Below are positions 2,248 through 60,045 of a stretch of DNA of 64,000 bases, one piece after another. Made by a program: the position numbers and the translations under genes. Below the pieces are notes generated by a model. That model did no database searches. It had not been told where the DNA came from and saw only the letters and a list, made by a program, of their open reading frames with translations. This stretch comes from Periweissella cryptocerci (lineage in GTDB: Bacteria; Bacillota; Bacilli; Lactobacillales; Lactobacillaceae): positions 1,178,001-1,242,000 of the forward strand of contig NZ_CP037940.1 of NCBI RefSeq assembly GCF_004358325.1. The letters run 5' to 3'. Each line of letters begins with the position of its first letter. The stretch's first letter is position 1.

Positions 2248-2570
2248 TGTTGCTGTTCCTACTACTATGGCCTATGGTTGGTAACTGTTTTCCGCTAGTT
2301 TAAGCATTATCACTAACTAACGGAGTGTCTGGAAATTGCTTGGCGGGCGCAGCCTTTACACCGCGACTGGGGGAATATGTGTGAAGCATGTATTCCTGCT
2401 GAGGATGAGATGAGGAGTCTTGGGGATTCATCTCCTAGAGTCCCAGCTTGTCCGAACCGACCAAGACCGTACTTTGGCTTGGTCGGCTGCTTCCAGCGTG
2501 GTGCGCCAAGTAATTTACCGACACGCAGTGGCCAATTTATTCAATCCCACGTCAGACGAAATAGAACAAA
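2248..2570 (-). repeat. Structured intergenic repeat, copy A (outer end missing)
   Basis: One of ten copies of a large element made of nested hairpins. This copy has the closing arms around GCTTGGCGGGCGCAG and TGCGCCAAGTAATT, three internal hairpins, and the conserved end CCCACGTCAGACGAAATAGA. It lies downstream of the stop codon of the minus-strand gene at 2607. The far end with the other inverted terminus is missing. Short open frames inside it are not genes. Confidence 0.85.
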
Positions 2571-2606
2571 AAAGTCCCTCACACCGTAGCGTGACAGACT
2601 ATCTAA

Positions 2607-2897
2607 TTACGCTTTAATGTACTTACCGATTGGGAAAGCACCACGGAGCTTCATGAGCTTTTCGCCCTTGGTCTTGCGCTTGCCAATCATTGACTTTTCT
2701 TCAGTGCCTTCATAAGCGTGACGAATTAATGGAAATAATTCATCCAATGTTAACGTTTCATCCGCGCTAACATTCTTAAAGTTACTGCCACTTTGCTTTT
2801 CAAAGACGCGGTGATCAAACGTGTTGACGAAAGTCACGTTTGCTGCCACGTCGCCAATTGCCATTTCTTCAGTTGATACATTAATACTACGACCCAT
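2607..2897 (-). CDS. Hypothetical 96-aa protein
   Basis: A complete small gene with a ribosome site (GAAGGAAATT) 7 nt before the ATG. It starts MGRSINVSTEEMAIGD and ends in a basic tail (KGEKLMKL...PIGKYIKA). No signal peptide, membrane segment or known motif is visible. It is separated from the DUF6429 gene upstream by 115 bp and is followed by repeat copy A. I do not recognise the family. Confidence 0.6.
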   Translation of the reverse strand: MGRSINVSTEEMAIGDVAANVTFVNTFDHRVFEKQSGSNFKNVSADETLTLDELFPLIRHAYEGTEEKSMIGKRKTKGEKLMKLRGAFPIGKYIKA

Positions 2898-3012
2898 TTT
2901 TTAATTTCCTTCTTTCGTTACATCCACTATGCAAATCATTTGCTATTTAAACCATGATTCGTGTGGTATATCGCCTAAGCTTAAGGCTTTAGCGTATATA
3001 ATACAAACAATA

Positions 3013-3291
3013 TTATTTATTGTCGTCAGCTTCCCATGGATCAGTCAGGTTATATTCGGCTAGCAACTGCTTAGCTTGTTCAACCCCCGCTGGGCTGATT
3101 GCGGCTGATTTACTACGGCGGCTACCTTGGTCAATTAACGCGGCTGAATCTAAACCATCGAGCACCCCGAATTCGTAACCTTTCCAGCTTTGCATAACTG
3201 CGTCAGTTTCTGTTTGGCGAAAGCGACTGTCATTTTCTTTAAAACCATTCAAGTACATTAACATCAATGTTAATTTTTCTGTATCCTTCAT
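3013..3291 (-). CDS. DUF6429 family protein
   Basis: Small cytoplasmic protein of 92 residues. The pattern LTLMLMYLNGFKE, then SWKGYEFGVLDGL, then RRSKSAAISPAGVEQAKQLL matches DUF6429 proteins as I know them. Their fold resembles a small winged helix, but no function is established. A good ribosome site (GAGGTGAATT) precedes the ATG. It begins 18 bp after the end of a VIT-family transporter gene and is probably cotranscribed with it. Confidence 0.75.
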   Translation of the reverse strand: MKDTEKLTLMLMYLNGFKENDSRFRQTETDAVMQSWKGYEFGVLDGLDSAALIDQGSRRSKSAAISPAGVEQAKQLLAEYNLTDPWEADDNK

Positions 3292-3309
3292 AATTCACCT
3301 CATTATTTC

Positions 3310-3990
3310 CTATTTTAGTAACGTTCCAATCCAATATGTGAATGCCATCGTAATAATCCCTGTCAGCATGTTCCGAGCAATTGCTGGTAGTTTTGGGGCC
3401 TTTCCTGACCAAGCACTTAACCAGCCAGTTAAAAATAATGCCCACAAAGTCGCAATAATTGTCCCCACGACTTTCCATTCTTGTGGCACCAAAATAATTG
3501 CCAATAGCGGCCAGATACCACCAGCAAGCGACGCAAAAAATGATGACCACAATGCATGGATTGGGCTCAAAAATTGATTAACTTCAAAGCCATATTTAAT
3601 CCGCACGTAATTACCTAAGGCATCGCTGTGCATCAAATCAGTAGCTACGCCGCTAGCCAATTCTAATCCAGCCCCTTTAGCTTGATAGTGTGCGGTAATC
3701 ACTTGATGCACTTGTTCGGGGTTCGTCCGTAGCGCTGCTTTAGCTTTGACCACTACGGCACGTTCCGTATCTTTTTGCGTAGACACTGATACAAACTCGC
3801 CCGAAGCCATTGAGAAGGCGACTGCAAACATTTCAGCTAGTCCGGCGACAAAGATAACGGTACTATTAGTGGTTGCCCCGGTGACCCCAAGGATAACACC
3901 GGCACCACCAATGATACCATCATTTGCTCCCAAAACACCGGCACGGACAATATTCAATCGTTCAGTTAAGGTTAATTTCTTTTTTGTCAT
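3310..3990 (-). CDS. VIT1/CCC1 family metal transporter (second of a tandem pair)
   Basis: Integral membrane protein of 226 residues in the VIT1/CCC1 family, whose members move Fe2+ or Mn2+ out of the cytosol. It carries the family hallmarks ANDGIIGGAGVILG near the N-terminus, the ASGEFVSVSTQKDTERA segment after the second helix, a cytoplasmic helical region of about 75 residues, and three C-terminal membrane helices. It starts one base after the stop of its paralogue, so the two are translationally coupled and may form a heteromeric transporter. The metal is not determinable here, though Mn would fit the Mn riboswitch 2 kb away. Confidence 0.88.
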   Translation of the reverse strand: MTKKKLTLTERLNIVRAGVLGANDGIIGGAGVILGVTGATTNSTVIFVAGLAEMFAVAFSMASGEFVSVSTQKDTERAVVVKAKAALRTNPEQVHQVITAHYQAKGAGLELASGVATDLMHSDALGNYVRIKYGFEVNQFLSPIHALWSSFFASLAGGIWPLLAIILVPQEWKVVGTIIATLWALFLTGWLSAWSGKAPKLPAIARNMLTGIITMAFTYWIGTLLK

Positions 3991-3991
3991 C

Positions 3992-4666
3992 TTACATCCC
4001 TACCAATAATCCAACACCGTACGTCACTGCCATCGTGAATAATCCAGCGATTACATTGCGTAAAACGGATTGTTTAGCTGGTGCATCCCCAAATTTTGCT
4101 GAGAAATAACCCGTCAGAATCAACGCAATTACCACAAAAATGATTGTTGCCACTACGCGATAGTGCGCACTAATCACAGTCATACCAACCATCGGTAAAA
4201 TTGCCCCCAGCGGAAATGCAATCATTGAAGCTACGGCCGCTTGCATGGGCGAAATCAAATTATCAGCATCAATCCCATACCGTAAAGCGAGCGTTTCTTT
4301 CAGGGCATCATGTGCCATCACTTCAGTCGCTAATGCTTGTGCCCGCACTGGGGTGATTCCTTCATCAATATAATTTGCCGTTAAAAATGCTTTTTCACCC
4401 GCAAAATCTTCAGCCAACACCCGTTGTTGGTGAACTTTGGCGGCCCGTTCTGAATCAAGTTGTGCATTCACTGAAACGTATTCACCCGTGGCCATTGAAA
4501 AAGTCCCGGCAATCGTTGCCGTTAAACCAGCGATTAAGATTGCCCACGTACTCATTGATGCGCCAAAGACCCCAAAGACTACCCCAGCAATTGAAATTAT
4601 CCCGTCATTAGCACCCATCACGATGGCGCGCAAAATATTTATTTTTCGACTAATATGCATATCCAT
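3992..4666 (-). CDS. VIT1/CCC1 family metal transporter (first of a tandem pair)
   Basis: Paralogue of the next gene, 224 residues, with the same architecture: GANDGIISIAGVVFG at residues 19-33, ATGEYVSVNAQLDSERA, a central cytoplasmic domain (VLAEDFAGEKAF...), then three helices ending in VTYGVGLLVGM. The family exports or sequesters Fe2+/Mn2+. The pair probably arose by tandem duplication, since order and length are the same but the sequences are well diverged. Transcription probably starts just upstream, after the terminator at 4681-4732. Confidence 0.88.
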   Translation of the reverse strand: MDMHISRKINILRAIVMGANDGIISIAGVVFGVFGASMSTWAILIAGLTATIAGTFSMATGEYVSVNAQLDSERAAKVHQQRVLAEDFAGEKAFLTANYIDEGITPVRAQALATEVMAHDALKETLALRYGIDADNLISPMQAAVASMIAFPLGAILPMVGMTVISAHYRVVATIIFVVIALILTGYFSAKFGDAPAKQSVLRNVIAGLFTMAVTYGVGLLVGM

Positions 4667-4680
4667 AATTTAAGGATAGC

Positions 4681-4732
4681 AAAAAAAGTGAGTGAAATCC
4701 TACCTTCTAGCATGATTTCACCCACTTCTTTA
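4681..4732 (-). terminator. Terminator after the rhodanese-like gene
   Basis: The minus strand reads a long hairpin with arms AAGTGGGTGAAATC and GATTTCACTCACTT followed by seven T. It ends the MarR-rhodanese transcript before the VIT pair. Confidence 0.75.
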
Positions 4733-4787
4733 CTTTTCTAATTTATAAGACACAGAATTCTCTGACGATTCAGTCAAATTATCCAGC

Positions 4788-5150
4788 TTAAATTTCTTCG
4801 ATTGGCAAGTTCATGCCTTTCCAACCTTCGAGTGCGCTCGCTAATTCATACGCTTCAAAGCCCGCAGATAACAATTGCAAGAGCGCTACTTTTCCAAGCG
4901 TCGTACCGGCTGTCCAATCGTAAACCACGTATGTTTTACTCTTATCTAATGTCGCAAGCTGTTGTGCTAAATCCTTGGCTGGAATTTCAATTGAACCTTT
5001 AATTTTGTCTTTTTTAACGAAAGCCGGTGCATTCCGTACATCGACCACAACGTACTTTTCATCATTTTCTTGTAACGCCTTCAATACCACATCATGCCCA
5101 ATATAAAGACTGAGATATGTTTCTAACAATTCGATTTTACTTGTATTCAT
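4788..5150 (-). CDS. Rhodanese-like domain protein with Asp in place of the catalytic Cys
   Basis: A single rhodanese domain of 120 residues: VVVDVRNAPAF near residues 34-44, the KGSIEIP strand, and the active-site strand YVVYDWTAGTTLGK. In active rhodaneses the residue after the VVY strand is Cys. Here it is Asp78, so sulfur transfer by the usual persulfide route is not expected. The gene overlaps the 3' end of the MarR gene by 14 bp, so both are coexpressed. A binding or sensing role is possible. Family assignment is firm, function is not. Confidence 0.8.
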   Translation of the reverse strand: MNTSKIELLETYLSLYIGHDVVLKALQENDEKYVVVDVRNAPAFVKKDKIKGSIEIPAKDLAQQLATLDKSKTYVVYDWTAGTTLGKVALLQLLSAGFEAYELASALEGWKGMNLPIEEI

Positions 5151-5679: not shown

Positions 5680-5704
5680 AACACCACTCCTTTTTGTTAT
5701 TTAG

Positions 5705-5716
5705 TTAGCTAGCTAA
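5705..5716. promoter_or_regulatory. Likely MarR operator
   Basis: Perfect palindrome TTAGCTAGCTAA inside a TTAG/CTAA-rich stretch, placed between the -10 box and the ribosome site of the marR gene. The position fits autorepression. Assignment to this regulator is inferred. Confidence 0.5.
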
Positions 5717-5723
5717 TTAAATT

Positions 5724-5752
5724 AGTTTATGACAATTAGTTAGTATTGTCAA
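5724..5752 (-). promoter_or_regulatory. Promoter of the marR-rhodanese operon
   Basis: TTGACA (5747-5752, minus strand) and TAAACT (5724-5729) are separated by 17 bp, a near-consensus sigma-70 promoter. Related TTAG/ACTAA half sites overlap it. Confidence 0.7.
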
Positions 5753-5760
5753 ACAAAAAT

Positions 5761-6355
5761 GGCTAAAATTTTTCTAGCGTGGAATTTGGATATGCGTCTC
5801 AGATTGATTCCCACTACGAGGCTGGAAACTGTCTGGACACCGTGATGGAAGACAAGCATTTGAAGCCACAGTGCGGTCTTCAAATGTTTGCGAAGCTTGG
5901 TTCGCTAACGCGGTAACCATCTTCACAAATCCATAATCAGTAACGAAACCCGTTACTGATTACGCCATCACGGTGCGAGCTAAAGTCCAGCCTGTTTCCA
6001 GCCTCTTCGTTAGTTTGCGTAGGCATTCTGACTAGTAATATGCCCGCAATCCTTGTCGCTGCAAGTTTAGCGGTAATCAATAATTCCACGCAGTGACATC
6101 ATACATCTCATTACATTTTATGAATTCCACGTCAGACGAAACAGAGCCAACAAAAATAGCCCTCGTCATGGAAACTGACTCGGGCTACGTAATTTCTGTA
6201 CTTTTCAATCATCCAATTACTGAGGTTCTATTGTCAGTGTTGTTTTTCCCGTGCTACTGCAACCTGTAACTGGTACCTGTTTTTCGCTGATTTGAGCATT
6301 ATGCATAACTAACGAAGTGGCCAATTTCATTCAATCCCACGTCAGACGAAATAGG
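5761..6355 (-). repeat. Structured intergenic repeat, copy B (composite)
   Basis: The outer end with TTTTTCTAGCGTGGAATT lies at about 5767 and a conserved inner end CCCACGTCAGACGAAATAG at about 6337-6355, five bases from the nadE stop. Inside, at 5818-6005, is another large hairpin with arms GAGGCTGGAAAC and GTTTCCAGCCTC enclosing smaller ones. A terminator-like hairpin (TAGCCC/GGGCTA followed by T on the minus strand) lies at 6153-6187. The stretch looks like two partial copies joined. No protein gene was seen in it. Confidence 0.7.
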
Positions 6356-6360
6356 AGATA

Positions 6361-9868: not shown

Positions 9869-10250
9869 GGTTCTATTTATTCTAGCGTGGGATTGTCGCT
9901 TCTGTATTTTTCAATCATCGAATTACTGAGGTTCTATTGTCAGTGTTGTTTTCCATACTACTGCGGACAGTGGTTGGCAACTGTTTTCGCTAGTTTGAGA
10001 ATTATTACTAACTAACGGAGTGACGGTGAATTACTTGGCGGTCGCAGACTTTACACCGTAGCTGGGGGAATATGTGTGCAGCACATATTTCCGCTGAGGA
10101 TAAGATGAGGACTCTAAGGAATTTATTCCTTAGAGTTCCAGCTTATCCGAATTTGCCAAGACCGTACTTCGGCTTGGCAATGCGCTTCCAGCGTGGTGCG
10201 CCAAGTAATTTACCGGCACGCAGTGGACAAGTTTATTCAATCCCACGTCA
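9869..10250 (-). repeat. Structured intergenic repeat, copy C
   Basis: Nearly full copy from GGTTCTATTTATTCTAGCG to TTCAATCCCACGTCA. It has the hairpins GAATATGTGTGCAGCACATATT, a perfect ACTCTAAGGAATTTATTCCTTAGAGT type stem, and TTGCCAAG/CTTGGCAA. Its last few bases are missing. It ends 18 bp from the stop codon of the minus-strand dehydrogenase gene. The stretch between 9769 and 10267 holds only the terminator and this repeat. Confidence 0.88.
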
Positions 10251-10267
10251 ACTTAATCGGCTAAAAT

Positions 10268-13720: not shown

Positions 13721-14350
13721 TCAATTGCTCCCGTGAAACTGGCTCACATCAATCACGACATCAGCTTGATTAGCGACATAGTCATCATGGGTAGCTACAA
13801 TAACAATTTTATTCGACTGAGCCATTGCTTGGAGGCTTTGTACAACCAATTTCGTATTTCCTTTATCAAGGGCACCCGTTGGTTCATCTGCCAAAATGAT
13901 TGGTGGGTTTTTCAAATATAAACGGGCAAGTGCAACCCGTTGGGCCTCACCACCGGAAAGGCTGTAAACTTTGCGCTTCAGATAACTTGCACTTAAGCCA
14001 AATTTTTCTAATGCCGTTTGCAACTCAATTACCGGATATCGTCGGACTAACCGGAGATTTTGCTGAACCGTATCCTCTTCAATCAAGGCATAATTCTGGA
14101 ATAAGTAACCTAAATATTCGCGAAAGTAAGTAATTACCGACATACCATATAAATCGGTATCATCCACCATAATCTGCCCGCTCGTCAACTCATCTAATTT
14201 TGCTAAGCTGTTCAGAATAGTTGACTTACCAATCCCCGATGGACCAATCAAGGCATACATTTTCCCTGGTTCAAACTTCAGATTCACATTTTGCAATAAT
14301 GCGGGCGTGTTGCCATACTGTTTAGTACCATTAATAATTTGTAGCATCAT
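13721..14350 (-). CDS. ABC transporter ATP-binding protein of a lactococcin 972-type locus
   Basis: Cytoplasmic ATPase of 209 residues. Walker A GPSGIGKS at residues 36-43, signature LSGGEAQRVALAR, Walker B IILADEPTGALD, and H-loop His in VATHDD. It belongs to the LolD/MacB-like branch found next to DUF1430 membrane proteins in lactococcin 972 loci, where the pair is thought to give immunity or export. Its start overlaps the stop of the DUF1430 gene by 4 bp, so they are coupled. Confidence 0.9.
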   Translation of the reverse strand: MMLQIINGTKQYGNTPALLQNVNLKFEPGKMYALIGPSGIGKSTILNSLAKLDELTSGQIMVDDTDLYGMSVITYFREYLGYLFQNYALIEEDTVQQNLRLVRRYPVIELQTALEKFGLSASYLKRKVYSLSGGEAQRVALARLYLKNPPIILADEPTGALDKGNTKLVVQSLQAMAQSNKIVIVATHDDYVANQADVVIDVSQFHGSN

Positions 14351-16332
14351 TTTTCCCCCTTGATTGTTGTTGCAAGCTTCTGCATATCCTTAGTCGCTTG
14401 CCAAGTAAACAAACTCCCAGCTACAGCTAATGATATCCCGCCAAATGAAGCGACAATTGATAATGGGGCCCGTAAAACACCAACCAGTAATACGCCTTCA
14501 AAAATTGTCACACCTAGCCAGAGAAGGATAAAATGGTAGTGAATCCGTAGCAGTGAATTTCCGTGTAAACGCTTGATAGCAGCGCGTTGCCGATTAGTCG
14601 TCAGATACACATTATTTACTAATTGATATTCCAAAAGTAATAGCACGATCAGCAACGCTAAAATTAGCAACAAGAGCTTAATCTTATTGTTAACCTCTTG
14701 GTACACCTTAGCTGCTTCGTCGTTAATATTCACGTACCCGCCAATTTGTGGTGCTAAACCAAATTCCGCGACCTTTTTAGCTAACTGCTTGAAATTTGGA
14801 AATATTAACCCTTGATTCGATAATATTGATTGCCAATTTCCATTAGGGGTGTCACTATCCCCGCCTAACGATTTTGGCGAGACTACTAAAATTACCGGAT
14901 TTGGTAGCTGACTACTGTATTGGCCTAGACTAAAACCATTTGTGTCGTAACTAAATATTTTTTGATTGGCCTTAATGCTGATAGGTTTCATCTGCATTTG
15001 TGGATTTTTGACGTGTAATTCTGCAAAAAATAATTCATACTCATATTTTTTAATTAATTCTTGGGTTCGTCCTTTTAGATTAGCTGGAATCAGTGCATAC
15101 GTAATATTTGAATCTTGTGGTAACTTAATCCGTTGATTATCTACCGTTACGATTTTATTTTGGCGTAAATAATTTGCATTAACTTCAAGGACGTTCCCAT
15201 TTGCGTAGTCGGTATAATTCGATGCATCACCGCCTCCATAAGCCGCTACAATCATTCCATGTTGGTTACCCCAATTCACCAATTTGTAAGTGTCTTTAGG
15301 ACCTTCGTCATGTTGAACGCCCGCAAATGCAGCTAAGGATAACGTATAATAGTTCGGTAAATTATGCCAAGTTGCTAACTCAGTTTTGACCTGATTAGCG
15401 GTCTTCAGATTTCCCATGACTAGTATGACAACTACCACAACTGCGACTTCGGTAAGCGCCTTAAAAAACCAATTAACCGTAAAAACTAACTTACTTTGTT
15501 GTTTACCGTTGATTGCAGCTAAAATCGTTTTCTCATTATGGGACAAAACCTGAATTACAATTGCTAATACGGATATACCCAACTCTAGAATAAGCAAAAG
15601 GCCAGCCAATAACAGCATCGGGTACATACTTCCTAACTGACTTCGGACGAACATACTGCCAATAACTACCAGTAGACTCAGCCCATAGCTCACTAAAAAA
15701 AGCCGTTGATCTTGCATAAATGCTTGCCACGCATCTGCCAATCGTGAAACTCCGTGTAAATGTTTAATATTGGACGCTCGCAAGTATTGAAAATTCGCCA
15801 CCACTAAGACAATAAAAAGCATTAACAACACCAACCCCAGAATAAGGTATAGATAGTTATTTGATAAAAAATCACCAACTAACCACGTGACATCAGTTGA
15901 TTGACGTTCATATGTCAATCCCAAGCGATGCAATTCATGGCCAATTGCTTGCGGGCTCACCTTACCAAAAAAGTATAAAGGATAACGTAAATCACTCGTC
16001 AAAAATTGATTATACGTCGCAAAAGCCTGGCGTGGCACTAAATGTTTACCGACTTGCTTGTCATTACCTAATGTATAAAATTTTTGAACCGGATTACTAC
16101 CAACCGTCGGGACAACAAATTGCTTCACAATCGCCACCTTATGTTCCCGACCAAAATCATCAAGTGCCTGATTAATCACATTTTTACGGCTTACATCATC
16201 AACTTTGGTAATCACATATGGTTTCGCCGTAACCGAAATAATATCTTGGGCATTCTGATTAACAAATAATAACAGCAAGCTAGCATACACCCCAGTAAGA
16301 ATAATTAGGATGGTTTTTCGCATTTTTCGCAT
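14347..16332 (-). CDS. DUF1430 family bacteriocin-associated integral membrane protein
   Basis: Membrane protein of 661 residues, normal for the bacteriocin-associated seven-helix family (DUF1430). One N-terminal helix (ILIILTGVYASLLLLFV), a large outside domain, three central helices (about residues 155-290), another outside domain, and three C-terminal helices, similar to FtsX/MacB permeases. It is the partner of the ATPase downstream and follows a lactococcin 972-like gene by 87 bp, the standard order of such loci. The immunity role is inferred from that context. A ribosome site AAAGGAAC precedes the ATG. Confidence 0.85.
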   Translation of the reverse strand: MRKMRKTILIILTGVYASLLLLFVNQNAQDIISVTAKPYVITKVDDVSRKNVINQALDDFGREHKVAIVKQFVVPTVGSNPVQKFYTLGNDKQVGKHLVPRQAFATYNQFLTSDLRYPLYFFGKVSPQAIGHELHRLGLTYERQSTDVTWLVGDFLSNNYLYLILGLVLLMLFIVLVVANFQYLRASNIKHLHGVSRLADAWQAFMQDQRLFLVSYGLSLLVVIGSMFVRSQLGSMYPMLLLAGLLLILELGISVLAIVIQVLSHNEKTILAAINGKQQSKLVFTVNWFFKALTEVAVVVVVILVMGNLKTANQVKTELATWHNLPNYYTLSLAAFAGVQHDEGPKDTYKLVNWGNQHGMIVAAYGGGDASNYTDYANGNVLEVNANYLRQNKIVTVDNQRIKLPQDSNITYALIPANLKGRTQELIKKYEYELFFAELHVKNPQMQMKPISIKANQKIFSYDTNGFSLGQYSSQLPNPVILVVSPKSLGGDSDTPNGNWQSILSNQGLIFPNFKQLAKKVAEFGLAPQIGGYVNINDEAAKVYQEVNNKIKLLLLILALLIVLLLLEYQLVNNVYLTTNRQRAAIKRLHGNSLLRIHYHFILLWLGVTIFEGVLLVGVLRAPLSIVASFGGISLAVAGSLFTWQATKDMQKLATTIKGEK

Positions 16333-16704: not shown

Positions 16705-16847
16705 TTCTTAACAACGACGATTATAAGTCTTTTCTTAACATTTGGTTCATTTTTTCTTAAGAGGCCTTTTTTGGTGCTTAAGCGTGTTTTTTCCAATTCT
16801 TAAAAGGGGGTAAATTCTTCTTAAGAACGATTTACCCCCTTTTAAGA
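16705..16847 (-). promoter_or_regulatory. Phased TTCTTAA array and activator-type promoter of the bacteriocin locus
   Basis: TTCTTAA or a one-base variant occurs at 16705, 16732, 16754, 16775, 16797, 16818 and 16840 (plus strand coordinates). From 16732 on the spacing is 22, 21, 22, 21 and 22 bp, two helix turns, so all sites face one side of the DNA. A -10 box TATAAT lies at 16720-16725 on the minus strand with no good -35, so the site at 16732-16738 takes its place. This layout suggests cooperative binding of an activator or repressor. The binding protein is not identified. Confidence 0.6.
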
Positions 16848-16850
16848 ATT
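16795..16850. terminator. Long perfect hairpin, possible terminator
   Basis: Twenty-base arms (ATTCTTAAAAGGGGGTAAAT and its complement) enclose a 14-base loop. It overlaps the last sites of the TTCTTAA array. It lacks a clean T run on the plus strand, so it may be an operator or the far end of the array rather than a true terminator. Confidence 0.45.
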
Positions 16851-16854
16851 AATG

Positions 16855-16880
16855 GCTCCATTTATTCTAGTGTGGAATTA
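16855..16880 (-). repeat. Solo end of the structured intergenic repeat
   Basis: GGCTCCATTTATTCTAGTGT matches the outer terminus of the repeat family but no body follows. It lies 67 bp from the stop codon of dus, in the same relative orientation as the full copies. Confidence 0.55.
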
Positions 16881-18256: not shown

Positions 18257-18892
18257 GGTTCTATTTATTTTAGCGTGGGATTCTCATTTATGTACTTTTG
18301 TTTAAGAATACTCGCATGCCACGGAATATACCATAGGCACTAGTTTGAGCACATTACAAAATCAGCGATAACTGATTTGATTGAATCTACAACCTAACGA
18401 ATTATCTTTCAACCACAGACAATTTACCGTGTTGAAGACGCAGTTAGCAAAGAAAATCAACACGCTATGTCAATAACATATCGATTTCACGAACCACTTT
18501 CGATTAGTACTGTTCTACATATTATTATTTCTGAACTACCGATTACTTACACCTGCGTATTATTTCGACTGCTTAGTTGGGGTTCCATGCATTTCGGCCC
18601 ATACCGACTATTTTTTGTTAGTTTGAGAATTATTACTAACTAACGCAGTGGCTGGAAATTGCTTGGCGGGCGCAGCCTTTACACAGCGACTGGGGGAATA
18701 TGTGTGAAACACGTATTTCCGCTGAGGATAAGATGAGGACTCTTAGGAATTTATTCCTTAGAGTCCCAGCTTATCCGAACCTCACAAGACCGCATTTTGG
18801 CTTGTGAGGTTGCTTCCAGCGCAGTGCGCCAAGTAATTTCCAGACGCAAAGTGGCCAATTTTATTCAATTCCACGTTAGACGAAATAGAGCC
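18257..18892 (-). repeat. Structured intergenic repeat, copy D (extended)
   Basis: Full ends GGTTCTATTTATTTTAGCG and CCACGTTAGACGAAATAGAGCC bound a 636-bp copy, longer than the others because of about 240 extra bases (18300-18600) next to the outer end. The three hairpins are intact, for example CCTCACAAG/CTTGTGAGG, which pairs with different bases from copies A and C. It ends 62 bp from the stop of the minus-strand repeat-protein gene. The gene-free stretch 18000-18953 holds nothing else recognisable. Confidence 0.82.
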
Positions 18893-18953
18893 GAAATTAC
18901 CAATTAAGTTGCATAAAAAAAGAACGCCCCATAATTAGGACATCCTTAATGTA

Positions 18954-19400
18954 TTATGCATCGAGCTTTTGATTCCAAGCTTTTTCCCAGTCTGATTCTT
19001 CACCATCTTTATGGTTAGACTTGTAGTGGTGATTGGCCCCCGCAGCAGTTGCTGATTCTTTCCAGGCGTTTTCCCACTTAGCTTCGTCACCCTTGGCTTT
19101 GATCACTTCATCGGATGGCTTGTTATTCCATTCTTGTTGCCACGCAGCATCTTCATCATCTTTATGATTGGTTTTGTAATGGTGATTGGCTGGTTCAGCA
19201 GTTGAAGCGTTTTGCCAAGCATTTTCCCATTCGGCTTCGGCACTGTTAGCTTTGATGGCTTCATCGGATGGCTTATTGTTCCATTCTTGTTGCCAAGTTG
19301 AATCTTCATCATCCTTACGATTGGCTTTATAGTGGTGTTCGCCTTCAAATGAAGTAGCTGCTTCCCACGTTTTAGTCCATTCGGTTTTTTCGTTTTTCAT
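18954..19400 (-). CDS. Tandem-repeat, Trp- and Asp-rich cytoplasmic protein
   Basis: 148 residues from the ATG at 19400, chosen because a GTGAGGG ribosome site sits just before it. An upstream ATG at 19421 has none. The protein is two full and one partial copies of a unit of about 51 residues: W..aW, then HHYK.N.KDDED..W, then QQEWNNKPSDE.IKA. No signal peptide or membrane segment, strongly hydrophilic. His, Tyr, Trp and acidic positions are nearly invariant between copies, as expected for a binding or scaffold repeat. I do not recognise the family. It is monocistronic, with repeat copy D behind it. Confidence 0.75.
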   Translation of the reverse strand: MKNEKTEWTKTWEAATSFEGEHHYKANRKDDEDSTWQQEWNNKPSDEAIKANSAEAEWENAWQNASTAEPANHHYKTNHKDDEDAAWQQEWNNKPSDEVIKAKGDEAKWENAWKESATAAGANHHYKSNHKDGEESDWEKAWNQKLDA

Positions 19401-21333: not shown

Positions 21334-21836
21334 GGCTATATTTTTCTAGCGTGGGGTTGTCGTTTCTGTACTTCTTAATCATTGAATTACTGAGGTTCTG
21401 TTGATTTTCAGTGTTTTTTCCACGCTACCGCAGCCTGTGATTGGTAACCATTTTTCACTAGTTTGAGCAATATTCCTAACTAACGGAGTGGCGGTAAATT
21501 ACTTGGCGGGCGCAGCCTTTACACCGCGACTGGGGTGAGATGTATGAAATACATGTCGCCGCTGAGGATAAGATGAGGACTCTAAGGAATTTATTCCTTA
21601 GAGTCCCAGCTTGTCCGAACCTCCCACGACAGACATCCAGCCTGCAAGGCTAATCTAATCGCGTTAGGATTAGATTCAGTATTTTGTGAAACAAAATGCT
21701 GGGATGTTTTGCGTTGTCGGTTCGCAGGCATAAGCACAGACTGGCTTGGGAGGTTGCTTCCAGCGTGGTGCGCCAAGTAATTTACTGGCACGTAGTGGTC
21801 AATTTTATTCAATCCCACGTCAGACGAAATAGAGCC
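21334..21836 (-). repeat. Structured intergenic repeat, copy E (with nested insert)
   Basis: Full copy bounded by GGCTATATTTTTCTAGCG and CAGACGAAATAGAGCC. The third hairpin carries an extra segment of about 105 bp (21625-21745) that itself holds two hairpins (ATCTAATC/GATTAGAT and AGCATTTTGT/ACAAAATGCT types). The same insert is in copy G at the same place. It ends 11 bp from the pbuX stop. Confidence 0.87.
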
Positions 21837-23822: not shown

Positions 23823-23840
23823 AGTATCTGACTATTTTCT

Positions 23841-23905
23841 GCTTATAGTCCAGCATTTAAGGTGCTAGGTAGAAACTGTCGGCCATATTCCGACGATATA
23901 TAAGC
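23841..23905 (-). ncRNA. Purine riboswitch aptamer, guanine type
   Basis: Minus strand shows P1 ends GCTTATATATCG and ACTATAAGC, the core GTTTCTACC, and the loops ATATGG and CCTTAAAT. The specificity base in GGACTATA is C, which selects guanine (U would select adenine). It precedes the terminator and xpt-pbuX, so guanine shuts the operon off. Confidence 0.93.
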
Positions 23906-23920
23906 GATATATTGTTACCT

Positions 23921-23949
23921 ATTTTACCGTAATGTTCGGGATTTCTCAA
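23921..23949 (-). promoter_or_regulatory. Promoter of the xpt-pbuX operon
   Basis: TTGAGA (23944-23949) and TAAAAT (23921-23926) on the minus strand with 17-bp spacing, just upstream of the riboswitch. Confidence 0.65.
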
Positions 23950-29193: not shown

Positions 29194-29547
29194 TCAAAGA
29201 TCACCTCCCTTTTTCAAATTTTTAAAAGGAATACCTTTCACTAGTCGTGCCGCATTAATCCCTAAATTCATTAAACTTTCATTATCATCCACACTAACAA
29301 TAAACAATGGTTCATTTTCCGGAAATCCTTTAAAATGGAGAATTGCGTGTTTTTCATCAAATGCAATTCCGACACCAAAATGGGAACTAATTGCCGCCTG
29401 ATATGCACTAGCTATGGTATTTTCACGCACAGTCGGTTCAACTTTAAATGCGACTTGTTCTTCTTCAATACCAAATAATATTTGATTCAAAACTTGCCCT
29501 TTGGAATCCGTCGCAACTACAATAACCGGTTTCGCTACCATACTCAT
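29194..29547 (-). CDS. pduH: Diol/glycerol dehydratase reactivase, small subunit
   Basis: 117 residues, the small subunit of the chaperone that swaps damaged cobalamin out of the dehydratase. KPVIVVATDSKGQ, FGVGIAFDEKHAILHFKG and NLGINAARLVKGIPFK fit the DdrB/PduH family, which resembles the beta subunit of the dehydratase. Start and stop overlap or touch the neighbours on both sides (ATGA overlap with the large subunit). Confidence 0.9.
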   Translation of the reverse strand: MSMVAKPVIVVATDSKGQVLNQILFGIEEEQVAFKVEPTVRENTIASAYQAAISSHFGVGIAFDEKHAILHFKGFPENEPLFIVSVDDNESLMNLGINAARLVKGIPFKNLKKGGDL

Positions 29548-31373
29548 ACCTCCCGAAATTCGTTGGCATAAGCAATAATTAAGCCCGTTGCAACCGCATT
29601 TCGTGGTCCTTTAATTGCCTGGATATTGCCGCTACCAGCTACTAAATTATATTTAGCCAATTCATCAGTAACTAACTGCGGAATTTCAAAATCTAATGCT
29701 GAGCCCCCAACGATAACAACAAATGGAATATCACGAATGTTTCCAGTTGGACTAACGTGTTTCAAAGCACGCAAGGCATTGCTAACAAAAACTCGCTTTT
29801 TAGCACTTTCACGCACAAATTTAATTTTCTCAATACTCAGTTCACCCGGTACTGGTACGTAACCATCTGGTTTAACAACTACTGTACTAGCAAAAATAGT
29901 TGCTGGTAATGCTTTTTCAAAGAATTCGACCGATCCATCTTCATGCCGAATATGAAAAAAGCTTTCAACTTTGGCCAACGGATACTTTTTGATATTTTCT
30001 GCTAAATATAAATCATCGAGACCAAGTTCCGAATTAATGATCATTGTGACCATATCTCCGGCACCAGCCAAGTGAATTGCCGCAATTTTGCCACCTTTAT
30101 TAATTATTGAAGCATCTGTTGAACCCGCACCTAAATCTAAAATAGCCATTGGGGCGGTCGTTCCGGGTGTCGTTAACGCCCCTAAAATAGCGGCTTCGGC
30201 TTCGGCACCACCAATTTGAACGGGTACTTTAAACTCAGACTCAATCGCATTTGCAATAATCGACATTTGTAGCCGGTCTGATTTGACCATTGAAGCAATC
30301 CCAACTGCTTGTTCCATTGAAAATTCACCGGCTAAGCCACCACGTACACTAATTGGAATTGATATATTAATCGCAAGTAAATCTTGAATGAAAATGTCGA
30401 CGATTTTCTTGTCGGTCAATTCAGCCATCGTTTGGCGCACCGATTCAAGCATACCGCCAATATTAGTTCCTGCTTCACCAGTTACATTATCAATTCTTGA
30501 AAAAGTTGCAATTTCCTGCATTATCTTTTCGGCACCCGCGGAAATACCAATGCGTGAAGTCCGATTATCACCATGAATTTCGAGTGTACCTGCTGGGATT
30601 ACCCGCGCTTTTACATCGCCTTGGGGTGTCTTAATAACCACTGCCGAGCGATTTCCAATTAGTGCTCGTGCGACGGGCACAACATTTTTTGTTTCCTTAG
30701 GACTTAAATTAAAGACCGTCGCAATCCCATAAGGATTTGACAGCTGAACGATCAACCGACCTTTCGCGGCTACTTCAACAGCCGCCAACATATCAACCGG
30801 TACTTTATCTAGAAAAGCGACCTCATCAACAATCGGAATTTTTTGATTGATACGGTTAAACAAAAGCACCCCATCATCACCTTGCATGATTGCAGCAGTA
30901 ATCTTATATCCTTCATCTACTAACGTATTAACTTTTTTCGCCGCTACAGCAAAATCGATCGTTTTGGCTATTAAAACAATATAATCACGTTGTTTATCGG
31001 GATAACTTTCCAATTTATTAAGCTCAACTGTATAACCAATGCCTGTACCAATCCCGCCAGGCGTTCGGGGATTGTGACCAATCATTGTTGATTCAGTAAT
31101 AATCGTCTCCGTGATTGTTTCCATTGCAACATCACCAATAACAGGGGTTGCTTCATTAATTCTGATACTATCAATTGTTGCGATATCAACGTTGGCTTGC
31201 TCCAGCACTCTATTGATTGCTTCACGAACCCCGATTACATTTTTGCGGGTCCCTTTAATACCCGTAGTTGGTGCAATTCCAGTATCAATAAAATGAATGT
31301 CCCCGTTTGTTTCTATTTCTGCTAATGCAACTTCTGTGGAAGAATTTCCAATATCAACACCAATCACTCTCAT
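29544..31373 (-). CDS. pduG: Diol/glycerol dehydratase reactivase, large ATPase subunit
   Basis: 609 residues, normal for DdrA/GdrA/PduG. Actin-like ATPase: GVDIGNSSTEVAL at the N-terminus (phosphate 1), ILDLGAGSTDASI (phosphate 2) near residue 415, and VVIVGGSALDFEIP toward the end. It works with the small subunit encoded after it to release inactive cobalamin from the dehydratase. Located directly after the small dehydratase subunit gene, 14 bp apart, as in other dha/pdu operons. Confidence 0.95.
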   Translation of the reverse strand: MRVIGVDIGNSSTEVALAEIETNGDIHFIDTGIAPTTGIKGTRKNVIGVREAINRVLEQANVDIATIDSIRINEATPVIGDVAMETITETIITESTMIGHNPRTPGGIGTGIGYTVELNKLESYPDKQRDYIVLIAKTIDFAVAAKKVNTLVDEGYKITAAIMQGDDGVLLFNRINQKIPIVDEVAFLDKVPVDMLAAVEVAAKGRLIVQLSNPYGIATVFNLSPKETKNVVPVARALIGNRSAVVIKTPQGDVKARVIPAGTLEIHGDNRTSRIGISAGAEKIMQEIATFSRIDNVTGEAGTNIGGMLESVRQTMAELTDKKIVDIFIQDLLAINISIPISVRGGLAGEFSMEQAVGIASMVKSDRLQMSIIANAIESEFKVPVQIGGAEAEAAILGALTTPGTTAPMAILDLGAGSTDASIINKGGKIAAIHLAGAGDMVTMIINSELGLDDLYLAENIKKYPLAKVESFFHIRHEDGSVEFFEKALPATIFASTVVVKPDGYVPVPGELSIEKIKFVRESAKKRVFVSNALRALKHVSPTGNIRDIPFVVIVGGSALDFEIPQLVTDELAKYNLVAGSGNIQAIKGPRNAVATGLIIAYANEFREV

Positions 31374-37441: not shown

Positions 37442-37839
37442 GGCTATATTTTTTCTAGTGCGGAATTGTCATTTCTGTATTTTTCAAGTATCGAATTACT
37501 GAGGTTCTATTGTCAGTGTTGGTTTTACATGCTACTACGACCCATGGTTGATAACTATTTTTGCTAGTTTGAGCATTATTCCTAACTAGCGGAGTGACGG
37601 TAAATTACTTGGCGGGCGCAGCCTTTACACCGCGACTGGGGTGATATGTGTGCAACACATGTCGCCGCTGAGGATGAGCTGAGGAGTCTAGGGAATTTAT
37701 TCCCATAGAGTCCCAGCTTATCTGAACCTCACAAGACCGCACTTTGGCTTGGGAGGTTGCTTCCAGCGTGGTGCGCCAAGTAATTTACTGGCACGTAGTG
37801 GCCAATTTTACTCAATCCCACGTCAGACGAAATTGAGCC
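37442..37839 (-). repeat. Structured intergenic repeat, copy F (full length)
   Basis: A clean 398-bp copy. Its ends GGCTATATTTTTTCTAGTG and (complement of the other end) GGCTCAATTTCGTCTGACG form an imperfect terminal inverted repeat of about 28 bp. The inner hairpin ATGTGTGCAACACAT corresponds to ATGTATGAAATACAT in copy E, a compensatory change. It ends 7 bp from the stop of the minus-strand isomerase gene. Confidence 0.9.
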
Positions 37840-50200: not shown

Positions 50201-50374
50201 AACTGTTCTGCTAGTCTTATACGCTACCACTATGTATCTGCGAATCGCTTGCAAAACCACACCGGAAACACATTCCAAGTCAAAGTGCATTTTTGACAAA
50301 TTACCAATGTAAAGTCTACGCCAGCAAAAATGCTTACAGCCATCCTAGTAAGCGCGTGGCAATGCTCAAACTAA

Positions 50375-50592
50375 CGAAGTGCCTAAGGAAACTGCTTTTT
50401 GGCGCAGCGAACACCGTGAATGGGCAGTGATTTATCACTTCGCTCAAGGGAAAGGAAATGAGGAGAGTTAGCGCTTTAGCGATTACTCTCCCAGTTCTCG
50501 CCGACTTTCTAAGACTACAGGCTTAGAAAGCTTGCTTCCATCACGGTGCAAAAAGCAGTTTCCGTGGCACGCAGTGGCAAGTACGAACAGAT
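50375..50592 (-). repeat. Structured intergenic repeat, copy I (diverged)
   Basis: Same layout as the other copies but with largely different bases: outer arms GGAAACTGCTTTTTGGCGC and TGCAAAAAGCAGTTTCC, the middle stem GAGAGTTAGCGCTTTAGCGA, and TTTCTAAG/CTTAGAAA. The folding pattern is kept although sequence is not. It lies downstream of the truA stop. Nothing else was seen in 50201-50661 apart from the terminator. Confidence 0.75.
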
Positions 50593-51502: not shown

Positions 51503-51963
51503 GTTCTATTTATTCTAGCGTGGAATTGTCGTTTCTATACTCTTGTTTACGAATACCCACGTACCACGGAATATACCTTAAGCGCTAGTTGGAGCATTAT
51601 ACCTAACTAACGTAGTGACTGGAAATTGCTTGGCGGGCGCAGTCTTTACACCGCGACTGGGGGAATATGTGTACAGCACATATTTCCGCTGAGGATAAGA
51701 TGAGGACTTTTAGGAATTTATTCCTTAGAGTCTCAGCTTATCCGAACCTCCCAAGACAGACATTCAGCCTGCAAGGCTAATCTAATCACGTTAGGATTAG
51801 ATTCAGTATTTTGTGCAACAAAATGCCGGGATGTTTTGCGTTGCCGGTTCGCAGGCATAAGCACCGACTGGCTTGAACATGTGCTTCCAGCACAGTGCAC
51901 CAAGTAATTTCCAGACACGAACTGGCCAAGTTTATTCAATCCCAAGCCAGACCGAATAGAGCC
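51503..51963 (-). repeat. Structured intergenic repeat, copy G (with nested insert)
   Basis: Copy from GTTCTATTTATTCTAGCG to the complement end GGCTCTATTCGGTCTGG, touching the ecfT stop codon. It carries the same 105-bp insert in its third hairpin as copy E (here 51755-51870). It separates ecfT from truA. Nothing else was seen in 51415-51962. Confidence 0.87.
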
Positions 51964-55751: not shown

Positions 55752-55780
55752 TTTACTTTTTGTAGGTGAAATGCTATACT
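55752..55780 (+). promoter_or_regulatory. Promoter of the NDH-2 gene
   Basis: TTTACT (55752-55757) and TATACT (55775-55780) with 17-bp spacing. Confidence 0.6.
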
Positions 55781-55852
55781 TTTTCTGTTGTAAGGAAACA
55801 AGCAATTTTTATTTTATTCTTTTATTAATAATAACATTCTAAGGAGTACAAC

Positions 55853-57760: not shown

Positions 57761-57784
57761 TCTTTAATCACATAAAATAATCAT

Positions 57785-57822
57785 GTAAAAGGTTCGTGGG
57801 CCGCGGTCCGTGAACCTTTTAC
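57785..57822 (+). terminator. Terminator after NDH-2
   Basis: AAAAGGTTCGTGG and CCGTGAACCTTTT arms around GCCGCGGT. Confidence 0.82.
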
Positions 57823-57861
57823 TATTACATAAGCATTTTGGGTATATTGACCTTAAGTGTG

Positions 57862-58090
57862 TTATTGCCACTGCGTGCCTGGAAATTGCTTGGCGCACCA
57901 CGCTGGAAGCTCATTGCTAAGCCAAAAAGCGGTCTTAGCAAACTCGGATAAGCTGGGACTCTACGGGAATAAATTCCCAAAACTCCTCATCTTTTCCTCA
58001 GCGACGATATGTGTTTCACACATATCGTCCCAGTCGCGGTGTAAAGACTGCGCCCGCCAAGCAATTTCCAGACACTCCGTTATTTTGAAC
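57862..58090 (+). repeat. Structured intergenic repeat, copy H (plus orientation, core only)
   Basis: Core of the element on the opposite strand to most copies: CTGCGTGCCTGGAAATTGC to GCAATTTCCAGACACTCCG, with the hairpins CGATATGTGTTTCACACATATCG and TTGCTAAG/CTTAGCAA. It follows the NDH-2 gene and terminator, again downstream of a stop codon in the sense direction. It occupies the place where eetA stands in complete EET loci. Confidence 0.83.
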
Positions 58091-58200
58091 TATCCTTACA
58101 CTTATACTTACGAAATGACATCGCAAATTAAAATCCTACCGCTAACTATATTAGGATTGAACAACGTAACGTTTTTAACATTAGAAAACTGGAGAAATTT

Positions 58201-58770
58201 ATGCGTGATGATGCACTAAAAAAATACATCTATATTGCCCTACTTGTTGCTCAAGGTGTGATTATTGGGTTACTGGAACGGATGATTCCCTTCCCATTTG
58301 CCTTCGCGCCTGGTGCTAAGCTCGGTTTAGCTAATTTAATTACGATTGTGGCTATTTTCACCCTGGACTTTAAGGACGCATTTACCCTTACTTGGATGCG
58401 CTTAATCATCACAATGCTCCTTGGTGGCACGGTTTCTACATTTATGTATAGTTTAGGTGGGGCAATGCTCTCATTTTTTGGTATGATATTAATAAAGCAA
58501 CTCGGCGAAAAGCGCGTTTCCATTATCGGAATTTCGGCAGCTGGTGGTGTTTTACATAATGTCGGTCAATTAGTCATCGCAAGTTTAATCGCACACTCTT
58601 GGAGCGTCTTGCTCTACTTACCAATATTGTCCTGGATTGGACTAGCGGCGGGGATTGCGATTGGGATTGCTGCCAACTACTTATTCCAGCACGTTGATGT
58701 CTTGAATAAACTCAAACTAAGCTTCAAAACCGAGCAAATTAAAAAACGTAAATTAAAACATGCACGATAA
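58201..58770 (+). CDS. Gx transporter / EetB-like membrane protein (heptaprenyl diphosphate synthase component I type)
   Basis: 189 residues, five helices, S-component-like fold: LVAQGVIIGLLERMIPFPFAFAPGAKLGLANLITIVA is the signature of this family, often annotated as heptaprenyl diphosphate synthase component I. In EET loci it is EetB. The role is unclear and it may help export or import a precursor. It is 20 bp before the polyprenyl synthase gene. Start at 58201 follows GGAGAAATTT. Confidence 0.85.
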   Translation: MRDDALKKYIYIALLVAQGVIIGLLERMIPFPFAFAPGAKLGLANLITIVAIFTLDFKDAFTLTWMRLIITMLLGGTVSTFMYSLGGAMLSFFGMILIKQLGEKRVSIIGISAAGGVLHNVGQLVIASLIAHSWSVLLYLPILSWIGLAAGIAIGIAANYLFQHVDVLNKLKLSFKTEQIKKRKLKHAR

Positions 58771-58790
58771 CATTTAAAGGACGTGAACAC

Positions 58791-59777
58791 ATGGCGCAAA
58801 CGCAACTTCACCCAATCTGGGATACTTATCCCGAAGTAAAAACAGAATTATTAGCCGTCGTCGATTTGATGGAAGCCAATATTAATTTAGCTGATTCAGA
58901 TGTAAAGACCGCTATCATTGATATGATTAAGCATGGCGGTAAAATGCTCCGACCAGCCTACACATTATTGATGTCAGCCTTTCACGAAACCGACCGTAAG
59001 AAAATGATTGCCCTCGCGGCAGCCATTGAAACTTTACACACAGCGTCACTAGTACACGACGATATTATTGATGATGCTCCCACTCGACGTCACCAACAAT
59101 CAATCCAACACCAATTTGGTAAGGATGTGGCAGTTTATGCCGGTGACTACTTATTCGTCGTCGTTTTCCGGATGCTCAGTACTTATCATAACGATTTGAA
59201 GTCAGTCCAAGTTGATACTGGTTATCTTGACCGGATTCTTGGTGGCGAACTTCAACAAAAAAGTTCACGCTACAACTACGAAATGACAATTGACACTTAT
59301 TTGAAGCAAATCAACGGTAAAACCGCTGAACTATTTGGTTTGGCAACTACAGTTGGTGCCATGGAATCCGGTGCCTCTACCGCCTTCACGAGTCTTGCTA
59401 AGTCAATTGGCGTTAACATTGGGATGGCCTTCCAAATTATGGACGACATTTTGGACTATGATGAATCTAGTGTTCAAATTGGTAAGCCAACGATGGAAGA
59501 CCTCCGTCAAGGTGTCTACTCAGCACCGTTGATCTATGCGATGACTGTTAGTCCAACCGAAATTTTACCATTATTGAAGCAAGAAGCCGCCATGACGGAT
59601 GCCCAAGCGCAACAGGTTGATGAACTCGTTAAAACCGCTGGTGGTGTCATGAGCGCCAAAGCTTTAGCCCAAAAATACACTGATGACGCGCTCCGGGGCA
59701 TCGCACAATTACCAACGCACCCCGCTAAAGACGTTTTGTTGGAATTAACGACTAAGTTGCTTGACCGCCGCGACTAA
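58791..59777 (+). CDS. Polyprenyl diphosphate synthase (DmkB/HepT-like)
   Basis: Builds the isoprenoid chain for demethylmenaquinone from IPP and a shorter allylic diphosphate. 328 residues. First Asp motif DDIID at residues 90-94 with following ArgArg, and second motif FQIMDDILDYD. The AVYAGDYLFV and INGKTAELFGLA segments fit long-chain trans prenyltransferases. Ribosome site AAAGGACG. Cotranscribed with the EetB-like gene. Confidence 0.92.
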   Translation: MAQTQLHPIWDTYPEVKTELLAVVDLMEANINLADSDVKTAIIDMIKHGGKMLRPAYTLLMSAFHETDRKKMIALAAAIETLHTASLVHDDIIDDAPTRRHQQSIQHQFGKDVAVYAGDYLFVVVFRMLSTYHNDLKSVQVDTGYLDRILGGELQQKSSRYNYEMTIDTYLKQINGKTAELFGLATTVGAMESGASTAFTSLAKSIGVNIGMAFQIMDDILDYDESSVQIGKPTMEDLRQGVYSAPLIYAMTVSPTEILPLLKQEAAMTDAQAQQVDELVKTAGGVMSAKALAQKYTDDALRGIAQLPTHPAKDVLLELTTKLLDRRD

Positions 59778-59828
59778 AATTATCGTGGGTAGTATTATCC
59801 ACATCATGAATAGCAATTTTATCAATCA

Positions 59829-59857
59829 AAGGAGTGACATTTGTTGCTCCTTTTTTG
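59829..59857 (+). terminator. Terminator after the polyprenyl synthase gene
   Basis: AAAGGAG and CTCCTTT arms followed by T run. Confidence 0.6.
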
Positions 59858-59877
59858 GTGTCTACTACATTTATTTG

Positions 59878-60045
59878 GACTGTTTCGTCTGACTTGAGAT
59901 TGAATAAAATTGGTAACTGCGTGCCAGCAAATTACCGGCACTCCGTTAGTTAGGTATAATTCTCCAACTAGCCAAAAAGTTACCACCCACAGGCAGCAAT
60001 ATCATTGAAACAACAACACTAACAATAGAACCACTGTTTCTATCA
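59878..60045 (+). repeat. Structured intergenic repeat, copy J (central hairpins deleted)
   Basis: Begins TTTCGTCTGACTTGAGATTGA, keeps TGCGTGCC and CTCCGTTAGTTAGG arms and then the complement of the outer region (CAACACTAACAATAGAACC), but the three inner hairpins are gone. Plus orientation, downstream of the polyprenyl synthase stop. No other feature in 59858-60216 except the leader of the protease gene. Confidence 0.72.

What the first reader, a model, noticed from the sequence alone, without database searches (positions are those of the whole stretch)
2248..60045. Family of large structured intergenic repeats with compensatory changes
At least ten copies (2248, 5761, 9869, 18257, 21334, 37442, 50375, 51503, 57862, 59878) and one solo end (16855). 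Each full copy has imperfect terminal inverted repeats (GGCTCTATTT...CTAGCGTGGG type), a closing stem (TTACTTGGCG/CGCCAAGTAA) and three hairpins. The hairpins change sequence but keep pairing: TGTGT/ACACA in one copy is TGTAT/ATACA in another. The last stem is GACCAAG/CTTGGTC, TTGCCAAG/CTTGGCAA, CTCACAAG/CTTGTGAG or TTTCTAAG/CTTAGAAA. Copy I keeps the shape with little sequence identity. This covariation means selection acts on the folded form, as RNA or as single-stranded DNA during mobility.
Basis: seen in the sequence. Interest (0 to 1): 0.75.

Follow-up and report, generated by a model that had tools for sequence, protein, structure and literature searches.

The report
Structured RNA cores in tiny transposons
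This lactobacillus genome carries several hundred copies of a small repeat whose inner part is an elaborately folding RNA-like module, mostly inside tiny transposons, and related modules turn up as repeats in other lactic acid bacteria and resemble a small RNA known from streptococci.

Summary
The window has nine copies of a ~210-nt core (long closing stem, multi-branch loop, three hairpins), seven of them inside miniature transposons whose ends nearly match a resident ISL3-family insertion sequence, with 8-bp target duplications. Sampling 800 kb elsewhere gives about 330 cores per 3.02 Mb. Covariation is strong in two MAFFT alignments (0 of 500 shuffles reach the score). G-U exceeds A-C on one strand, so that strand's fold is selected; RNA is favoured. 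No Rfam family matches the window copies. Covariance models find relatives in Levilactobacillus, Lactiplantibacillus, Secundilactobacillus and at least two further Lactobacillales families, in high copy in several genomes; some loci match Rfam SSRC8_2, a streptococcal sRNA seen on Northern blots (paper passages), below its cut-off. In other lactobacilli close neighbours are mostly outward-facing pairs (19 of 22). The closest known kind is the MITE, above all pneumococcal BOX repeats, whose boxA motif is enriched at the 3' end of Levilactobacillus-type cores; but the models do not significantly detect a real BOX element, so membership is not claimed. Function is inferred, and transcription here was not testable. 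Verdict: new variant of a known kind, unusually widespread.

The parts
2249..2567 (+). MITE-A, 5' end missing; core 2315-2532
   Evidence: nhmmer arms and core
5761..6148 (+). TIR-bounded MITE of the B type holding one core of family C on the minus strand (5810-6015)
   Evidence: flanks ACAAAAAT / AACAAAAA, not an exact duplication
6189..6354 (+). MITE-A without a core (junction ACGAAGTGGCC), left end missing
9870..10256 (+). MITE-A with core 10010-10227; right end degenerate, no target duplication seen
16854..16876 (+). solo left terminal repeat
   Evidence: seen in sequence and BLAST
18257..18892 (+). MITE with core 18638-18855 and a longer left part; flanks GAAATCAC / GAAATTAC (7 of 8)
21334..21836 (+). 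MITE-A with core 21478-21799, nested module in hairpin 3; GCATTTTT on both sides
37442..37839 (+). Complete MITE-A, core 37584-37802; CGTATTTT on both sides
50369..50578 (+). Solo core of family I, no terminal repeats
51503..51963 (+). MITE with short left arm; core 51605-51926 with nested module; no clear target duplication
57867..58085 (-). Solo core of family A, no terminal repeats
59880..60037 (-). MITE-A arms without a core (remnant GCCGGTAATTTGCTGGC)

Best explanation
A family of non-autonomous miniature transposons (MITEs) built around a conserved, strand-specific RNA-type fold. In this genome the outer element is most likely moved in trans by a resident ISL3-family transposase through ~23-bp ends (ends and 8-bp duplications shown; transposition itself inferred). 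The inner core is a separate module: it also occurs solo here, inside a MITE with other ends in another species, commonly as two cores facing outward, and as repeats in other Lactobacillales. Fold selection on one strand is shown statistically. Most likely mechanism (inferred): the core acts as RNA when transcription crosses it on that strand, giving a compact, nuclease-resistant or protein-bound domain that shields the element or the host from the effects of the insertion; active lineages keep the fold while old copies decay. Coreless copies arise by deletion at the base of the fold (inferred from their junctions).
For: MITE: 22 ISL3-transposase matches, fragments included; 5 of the 10 loci fetched are bounded by GGCTGTATTTTTTTTAGCGTGGG / GGCTCTATTCCGTCTGACGTGGG, nearly the MITE's two ends, with identical 8-bp flanks, while the other 5 have different ends; 49 of 102 MITE end pairs have 7-8 of 8 flanking bases alike against 1.2 expected. 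Copy number: 88 merged cores in 800 kb on a rough grid, about 332 per genome. Fold: A1 and A4 (30 of 49 pairs changed on both sides, score 0.509 against 0.184, 0 of 500). Strand: G-U/A-C 46/2 forward but 5/22 when the reverse complement is folded (A4), 31/8 and 12/7 in A1; 224/45 in 48 copies of this genome. Module: R2, whose rows come from other genomes (but were fitted to R1's structure), finds this genome's copies at 4.5e-23; R3, from three sequences of another family (first found with R2), matches many Levilactobacillus cores at the places and strand of R1, best 4.4e-11, and R2 matches R3's loci. Outward pairs 19 of 22 close neighbours, none inward. Other ends in Lactiplantibacillus songbeiensis, ACGCTTGGTGCTAGTT: 226 sites against 10 for the reversed pattern. 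Transcription of a relative: SSRC8_2 matches L334 over 1-281/281, E 1.6e-12 but 52.9 of 72 bits; SSRC8 gave Northern signals in S. pyogenes (PMC3675131, passages).
Against: In copy 37442 no terminator and no promoter-like site on the folded strand was found (2 sites, both on the other strand; 0.9 expected). MITE-A lies antisense to neighbours in 50 of 56 leading-strand tandem gaps, so read-through would usually make the other strand. No expression data for this genome. 22 left arms, some partial, lack a core, so the core is not needed for the ends to be kept. In A1 the strand asymmetry is weak: the reverse fold also has more G-U (12) than A-C (7). The outward geometry would also fit single-stranded DNA. 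R3 finds nothing in the window at E<=1; the link runs through R2.
Confidence: 0.6

Rival explanations
1. No selection on the fold: arms of hairpins are kept complementary by template switching during DNA replication (quasi-palindrome correction), which changes both arms in one event.
For: Hairpin 3 changes as whole-stem alleles shared among copies, e.g. CCTCCCAAG/CTTGGGAGG versus TTTGCCAAG/CTTGGCAA; inverted arms favour such events (recalled knowledge).
Against: Correction makes Watson-Crick arms and treats both strands alike, yet in A4 G-U is 46 against 2 A-C on one strand and 5 against 22 on the other. In A4 the loop and bulge letters AGACCGC..TT.GGCT of hairpin 3 are invariant while its stem changes.
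Confidence: 0.12
2. The fold is selected as single-stranded DNA on the strand that carries the transposon's 3' ends, as a substrate or signal in transposition.
For: In paired elements the folded strand at each end runs outward, so it carries the 3' end at both ends (geometry). Variable stems with fixed bulges also suit structure-specific DNA recognition.
Against: G-T wobbles are only a modest gain in DNA (recalled), whereas G-U makes up 46 of the 70 non-Watson-Crick cells in A4. No Y1 (HUH) transposase in this genome (0 matches). ISL3 transposases are thought to act on double-stranded ends (recalled).
Confidence: 0.2
3. The core is a host-useful regulatory RNA, some copies recruited as leaders or sRNAs.
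For: A relative is a transcribed streptococcal sRNA; BOX repeats are thought likely to affect co-transcribed genes (PMC3049150, abstract and section 10).
Against: Hundreds of copies; four sister species gave no match; no shared flanking proteins among 12 loci of other families (1.2 kb each, E<=1e-5); MITE-A was found in no gap between divergent genes (0 of 75 against 79 of 527 gaps, with my own gene calls).
Confidence: 0.08

Closest known systems
BOX repeats of Streptococcus pneumoniae, S. mitis, S. suis (PMC3049150)
   Same: High-copy, modular, MITE-like intergenic repeats in Lactobacillales, tightly folded, transcribed in some places (paper). The boxA motif CGGCAAGGCGAC (part of primer BOXA1R, PMC7291552) is enriched downstream of hairpin 3 in other-genera cores: at least 9 of 12 letters in 40 of 104 against 4.4 expected; TAGCCGCAGG, read in a real BOX element (L332), at least 9 of 10 letters upstream in 12 of 102 against 0.9 (copies of one species are not independent).
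   Different: Inner part is a multi-branch loop with bulged-A hairpins (AGACC..GGCT); boxB was not tested. On a real BOX element R2's best match lies on the element and the right strand but at E 0.08, and R3's best (0.038) lies elsewhere, so no significant detection.
Rfam RF02616 SSRC8_2, Streptococcus sRNA 8
   Same: Shares hairpins and closing stem; full-length match in L334, E 1.6e-12. R3, which finds those loci, matches 63 genomes of one other genus (f4/g24).
   Different: Below the gathering score of 72 bits in all 7 loci that matched (27.1-52.9); catalogued as an sRNA gene; no match to the window copies.
ISL3-family MITEs
   Same: Ends, 8-bp duplications, resident transposase.
   Different: Related cores occur in elements with other ends; likeness to the ISL3 parent beyond the ends was not tested.

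Membership tests
ISL3-type MITE (outer element) | Terminal repeats shared with a resident autonomous element | tested here: met
   Both ends nearly match those of ISL3 copies L070, L072, L073, L075, L078, 5 of 10 loci fetched
ISL3-type MITE (outer element) | Target duplication of the family's length (8 bp) | tested here: met
   49 of 102 end pairs at 7-8 of 8 against 1.2; the 102 include spurious and doubly counted pairs
ISL3-type MITE (outer element) | No transposase gene inside; short | tested here: inconclusive
   Commonest length 380-400 bp (30 of 102); inner ORFs were not analysed beyond the mechanical list
BOX repeat (core) | boxA/boxC motif at the base of the fold | tested here: inconclusive
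   Enriched in cores of other genera; not tested for this genome's own copies
BOX repeat (core) | boxB modules between boxA and boxC | not tested
   No boxB model at hand
BOX repeat (core) | Significant homology with a real BOX element | tested here: not met
   R2 and R3 on MK448497 12400-12875: best E 0.08 (on the element) and 0.038 (elsewhere)
SSRC8_2 (RF02616) | Gathering score 72 | tested here: not met
   Best 52.9 in L334; none in the window
IS200/IS605- or RAYT-mobilised palindromes | Y1 transposase available | tested here: not met
   PF01797: 0 matches in this genome
Any Rfam 15 family | Match to the window copies | tested here: not met
   Only two purine riboswitches in the window at gathering scores; nothing at E<=1 for 18550-18930

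The most novel reading that the evidence does not exclude
An ancient, mobile, ornate RNA that spreads across Lactobacillales by riding different transposons, with the RNA itself needed for spread (as a trans-acting or protein-bound partner of transposition), so that an sRNA already catalogued in streptococci is one captured member of a selfish RNA superfamily.
Probability: 0.2. Interest if true: 0.88.

Novelty: new variant of a known kind. Interest (0 to 1): 0.63.

Why it matters
Repeats of this size are often set aside as palindromic junk. Here one conserved fold, with strand-specific selection, links high-copy repeats in several lactobacillus genera, loci that resemble a streptococcal sRNA family, and possibly BOX repeats; no Rfam 15 family matched the copies of this genome. 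If the fold is needed for spread it would be a selfish RNA module shared by unrelated transposons; if not, it is a ready test bed, in harmless food bacteria, for what structured repeats do to transcripts.

Tried and rejected
Rfam: no match for the window copies; twelve loci of relatives gave only a T-box next to one core and one weak sRNA match, both below cut-off. Plasmids: no match for a window copy or for an L. brevis core. Viral contigs: one motif hit, L153, where the model gives E 0.89 on 20 bases and no core-like fold was seen. Single-strand (Y1) transposition in this genome: no such transposase. A second outer stem beyond the terminal motif looked real in some solo copies, but flank pairing is not clearly above mismatched flanks (mean -12.1 against -11.1 kcal/mol; 3 of 31 below the control's 5th percentile; some rows have a misplaced left motif), so it is not claimed. 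Orientation: copies follow the replichore in 123 of 150 listed, but coreless MITEs (tandem gaps: 14 of 15 antisense) and MITE-B, which has cores both ways, are biased too, so I read it as a trait of the ISL3 ends or of selection on neighbours, not of the core; 75 listed L. brevis copies show no evident strand pattern (40 plus, 35 minus; origin not located, no test). Conserved neighbours of the single-looking copies in other families: none among 12 loci; R3 then showed high copy number in two of those genomes. Not in print, as far as listings show: searches listed no paper whose title or shown abstract describes these repeats in lactobacilli; I did not open most of them, and the library holds only open-licence papers.
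Full report
What is there. The window (G000:C1:1178001-1242000) holds nine copies of a ~210-nt core, seven inside transposon-like elements and two solo, plus two elements with arms but no core and one solo end. The outer element MITE-A is ~395 bp: left end GGYTCTATTTNTTCTAGCGTGGG, ~140 bp arm, core bounded by AACTAACGNAGTG and CACGNAGTGGC, and a right end reading GGCTCTATTTCGTCTGACGTGGG from outside. A larger type, MITE-B (~720 bp), holds two cores, one on each strand, both facing outward.

How many. One blastn query scored 40 of 316 candidates; model R1 matched all 150 that were scored of 674. For an estimate not led by hits I took 40 stretches of 20 kb on a rough grid: after merging fragments, 88 cores in these 800 kb, about 332 per genome (roughly 263-402), and 97 in 864 kb with the window, by type A 52, C 23, B 19, I 3.

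How the outer element moves. The genome has 22 ISL3-transposase (PF01610) matches, fragments included. Of ten loci fetched, five have nearly the MITE's two ends around the gene, ~1.53 kb apart, with identical 8-bp flanks; the other five belong to an element with different ends. Among MITE end pairs 49 of 102 have 7 or 8 of 8 flanking bases alike against 1.2 in shuffles; the 102 include spurious and double pairings. In the window the clear cases are 37442-37839 (CGTATTTT), 21334-21836 (GCATTTTT) and 18257-18892 (7 of 8). Movement itself is inferred.

The core. In nine diverse copies (A1, MAFFT) 34 of 62 pairs change on both sides; covariation score 0.447 against 0.178 (0 of 500), 0.069-0.091 when slid. 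In sixteen Levilactobacillus-type cores (A4, MAFFT) 30 of 49 pairs change on both sides; 0.509 against 0.184 (0 of 500), 0.055-0.148 when slid. The structures came from the same alignments, so the slides lean in their favour, and related sequences can exceed shuffles; but the size of the effect in two sets makes chance hard to hold. Fixed features while stems change: the AGACCGC.CTTTGGCT apex of hairpin 3 with its bulged A (A4) and the CTTCCA/GTTCC stretch after it.

Which strand. On A4 the predicted pairs contain 46 G-U and 2 A-C cells; folding the reverse complement gives 5 G-U and 22 A-C. On A1 31/8 and, reversed, 12/7, so A1 alone is not clear-cut. In 48 family-A copies of this genome 224/45, or 109/45 counting only pairs whose commonest form is Watson-Crick. 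The + strand of the core is therefore the one kept. RNA is the natural reading; single-stranded DNA is not excluded.

Loss of the core. Of 22 left arms without a core, some partial, 9 join ACGNAGTG (one ATGGAGTG) straight to GCC, 5 keep a short palindrome from the closing stem and 3 variants of it, and 5 end otherwise. Among the nine the variable letter is G or A, usual for the left copy, in 5 and C or T, usual for the right copy, in 4. That looks like repeated deletion at the base of the hairpin rather than sites never filled (inference; the left copy is not always G or A). Nested modules: a ~105-nt structured piece sits in hairpin 3 of several A and B cores and, reversed, replaces the inside of one core.

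Spread. blastn finds the core in 1 of 41 genomes, its own; none of four sister species gave an R1 match. R1 finds 14 of 301 genomes of the family. R2, from 53 R1 matches in other genera, finds 24 of 395 genomes of the order and only the own genome among 299 of the class. L. brevis CD0817 (G317, same coordinates as G249): all 150 scored of 841 candidates match. R3, from three sequences of family f5, finds 61 and 132 matches (150 scored each) in two of seven genomes of that genus, and 68 of 395 genomes of the order, 63 of them in one further genus (f4/g24). R3 matches many Levilactobacillus cores at the places and strand of R1 and R2 matches R3 loci, so I treat these as one superfamily. The models were made in a chain (R1 to R2 to R3), so they are not independent. 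R3 did not match the window; R2 joins the two.

Arrangement. Among 129 R1 matches (E<=1) in other lactobacilli, 22 neighbours lie within 700 bp: 19 minus-then-plus (outward), 3 same-strand, none inward. In L. songbeiensis 226 end sites ACGCTTGGTGCTAGTT (10 for the reversed pattern) mark MITEs; 16 were fetched, 248-406 bp long, with exact duplications of 7-9 bp in 6 of 16 and no control run; in the two printed in full, by eye, a core stands on each strand facing outward. These ends differ from the ISL3 ends, so related cores travel in more than one kind of outer element. In L. brevis the flanks of the core are also repeated; ends were not worked out.

Known kinds. Croucher et al. 2011 (PMC3049150; outline, abstract, passages, sections 5, 7 and 10) describe 125 BOX elements in one pneumococcus, related ones in S. 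mitis and S. suis, folds drawn from alignments, and transcription of some. The boxA primer motif is enriched downstream of hairpin 3 and TAGCCGCAGG upstream in cores of other genera, but neither model significantly recognises a real BOX element; R2's weak best match (E 0.08) does lie on it. I call the core BOX-like and do not file it as BOX. SSRC8_2 matches four loci of f4/g24 and three of f5, all below its cut-off; the S. pyogenes RNA gave Northern signals (PMC3675131, passages). That is the only evidence for transcription, and it is for a relative. The MITE review PMC10969869 (passages) mentions BOX but had no occurrence of 'Lactobacill' or 'ISL3'.

What it does. Shown: ends and duplications of a mobile outer element, strand-specific fold selection, cores apart from that outer element, wide spread. 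Inferred: the core works as RNA and pays its way for the element, by shielding or by binding a protein. In copy 37442 no promoter-like site was found on the folded strand, and most MITE-A copies in leading-strand tandem gaps lie antisense to neighbours (50 of 56), so the source of the RNA is the weakest link.

Noticed in passing
window 23826-23923 (-) and 62366-62461 (+): Two purine riboswitch aptamers above the Rfam gathering score.
   Followed up: no
window 29544-31373 (-): Diol dehydratase reactivase (PduG) in a run of same-strand genes, perhaps a pdu cluster; its neighbours were not searched.
   Followed up: no
window 14347-16332 (-): Protein like the bacteriocin-associated membrane protein TIGR01654, just under its cut-off (173.2 of 189.35 bits).
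   Followed up: no
window 18965-19314: 153-bp direct repeats inside a minus-strand ORF.
   Followed up: no
window 16795-16850: 28-bp inverted repeat without spacer right next to the solo end.
   Followed up: no
G000, 992 kb of fetched DNA: MITE-A lies in no gap between divergent genes (0 of 75; background 79 of 527 gaps) and is antisense in 50 of 56 leading-strand tandem gaps (gene calls by my own script).
   Followed up: partly
L129, between the cores at 1002-1158 and 1501-1615: A short frame followed by a terminator-like hairpin that by eye resembles a Fst-like type I toxin (not searched).
   Followed up: no
G590:C1:1229364-1229875 and 1267256-1268000: Same-strand arrays of the R3-type element about 180 bp apart.
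   Followed up: no
L137 1760-1943: T-box leader match below its cut-off close to a core; [quoted passage not shown]
   Followed up: no
L090 14136-14316 (-): A core whose whole interior is replaced by the nested module in reverse.
   Followed up: no
L069, L071, L074, L076, L077: A second ISL3-family element with different ends (GGCTCTGTGTC / GGCTCTATACT) and 8-bp duplications.
   Followed up: no
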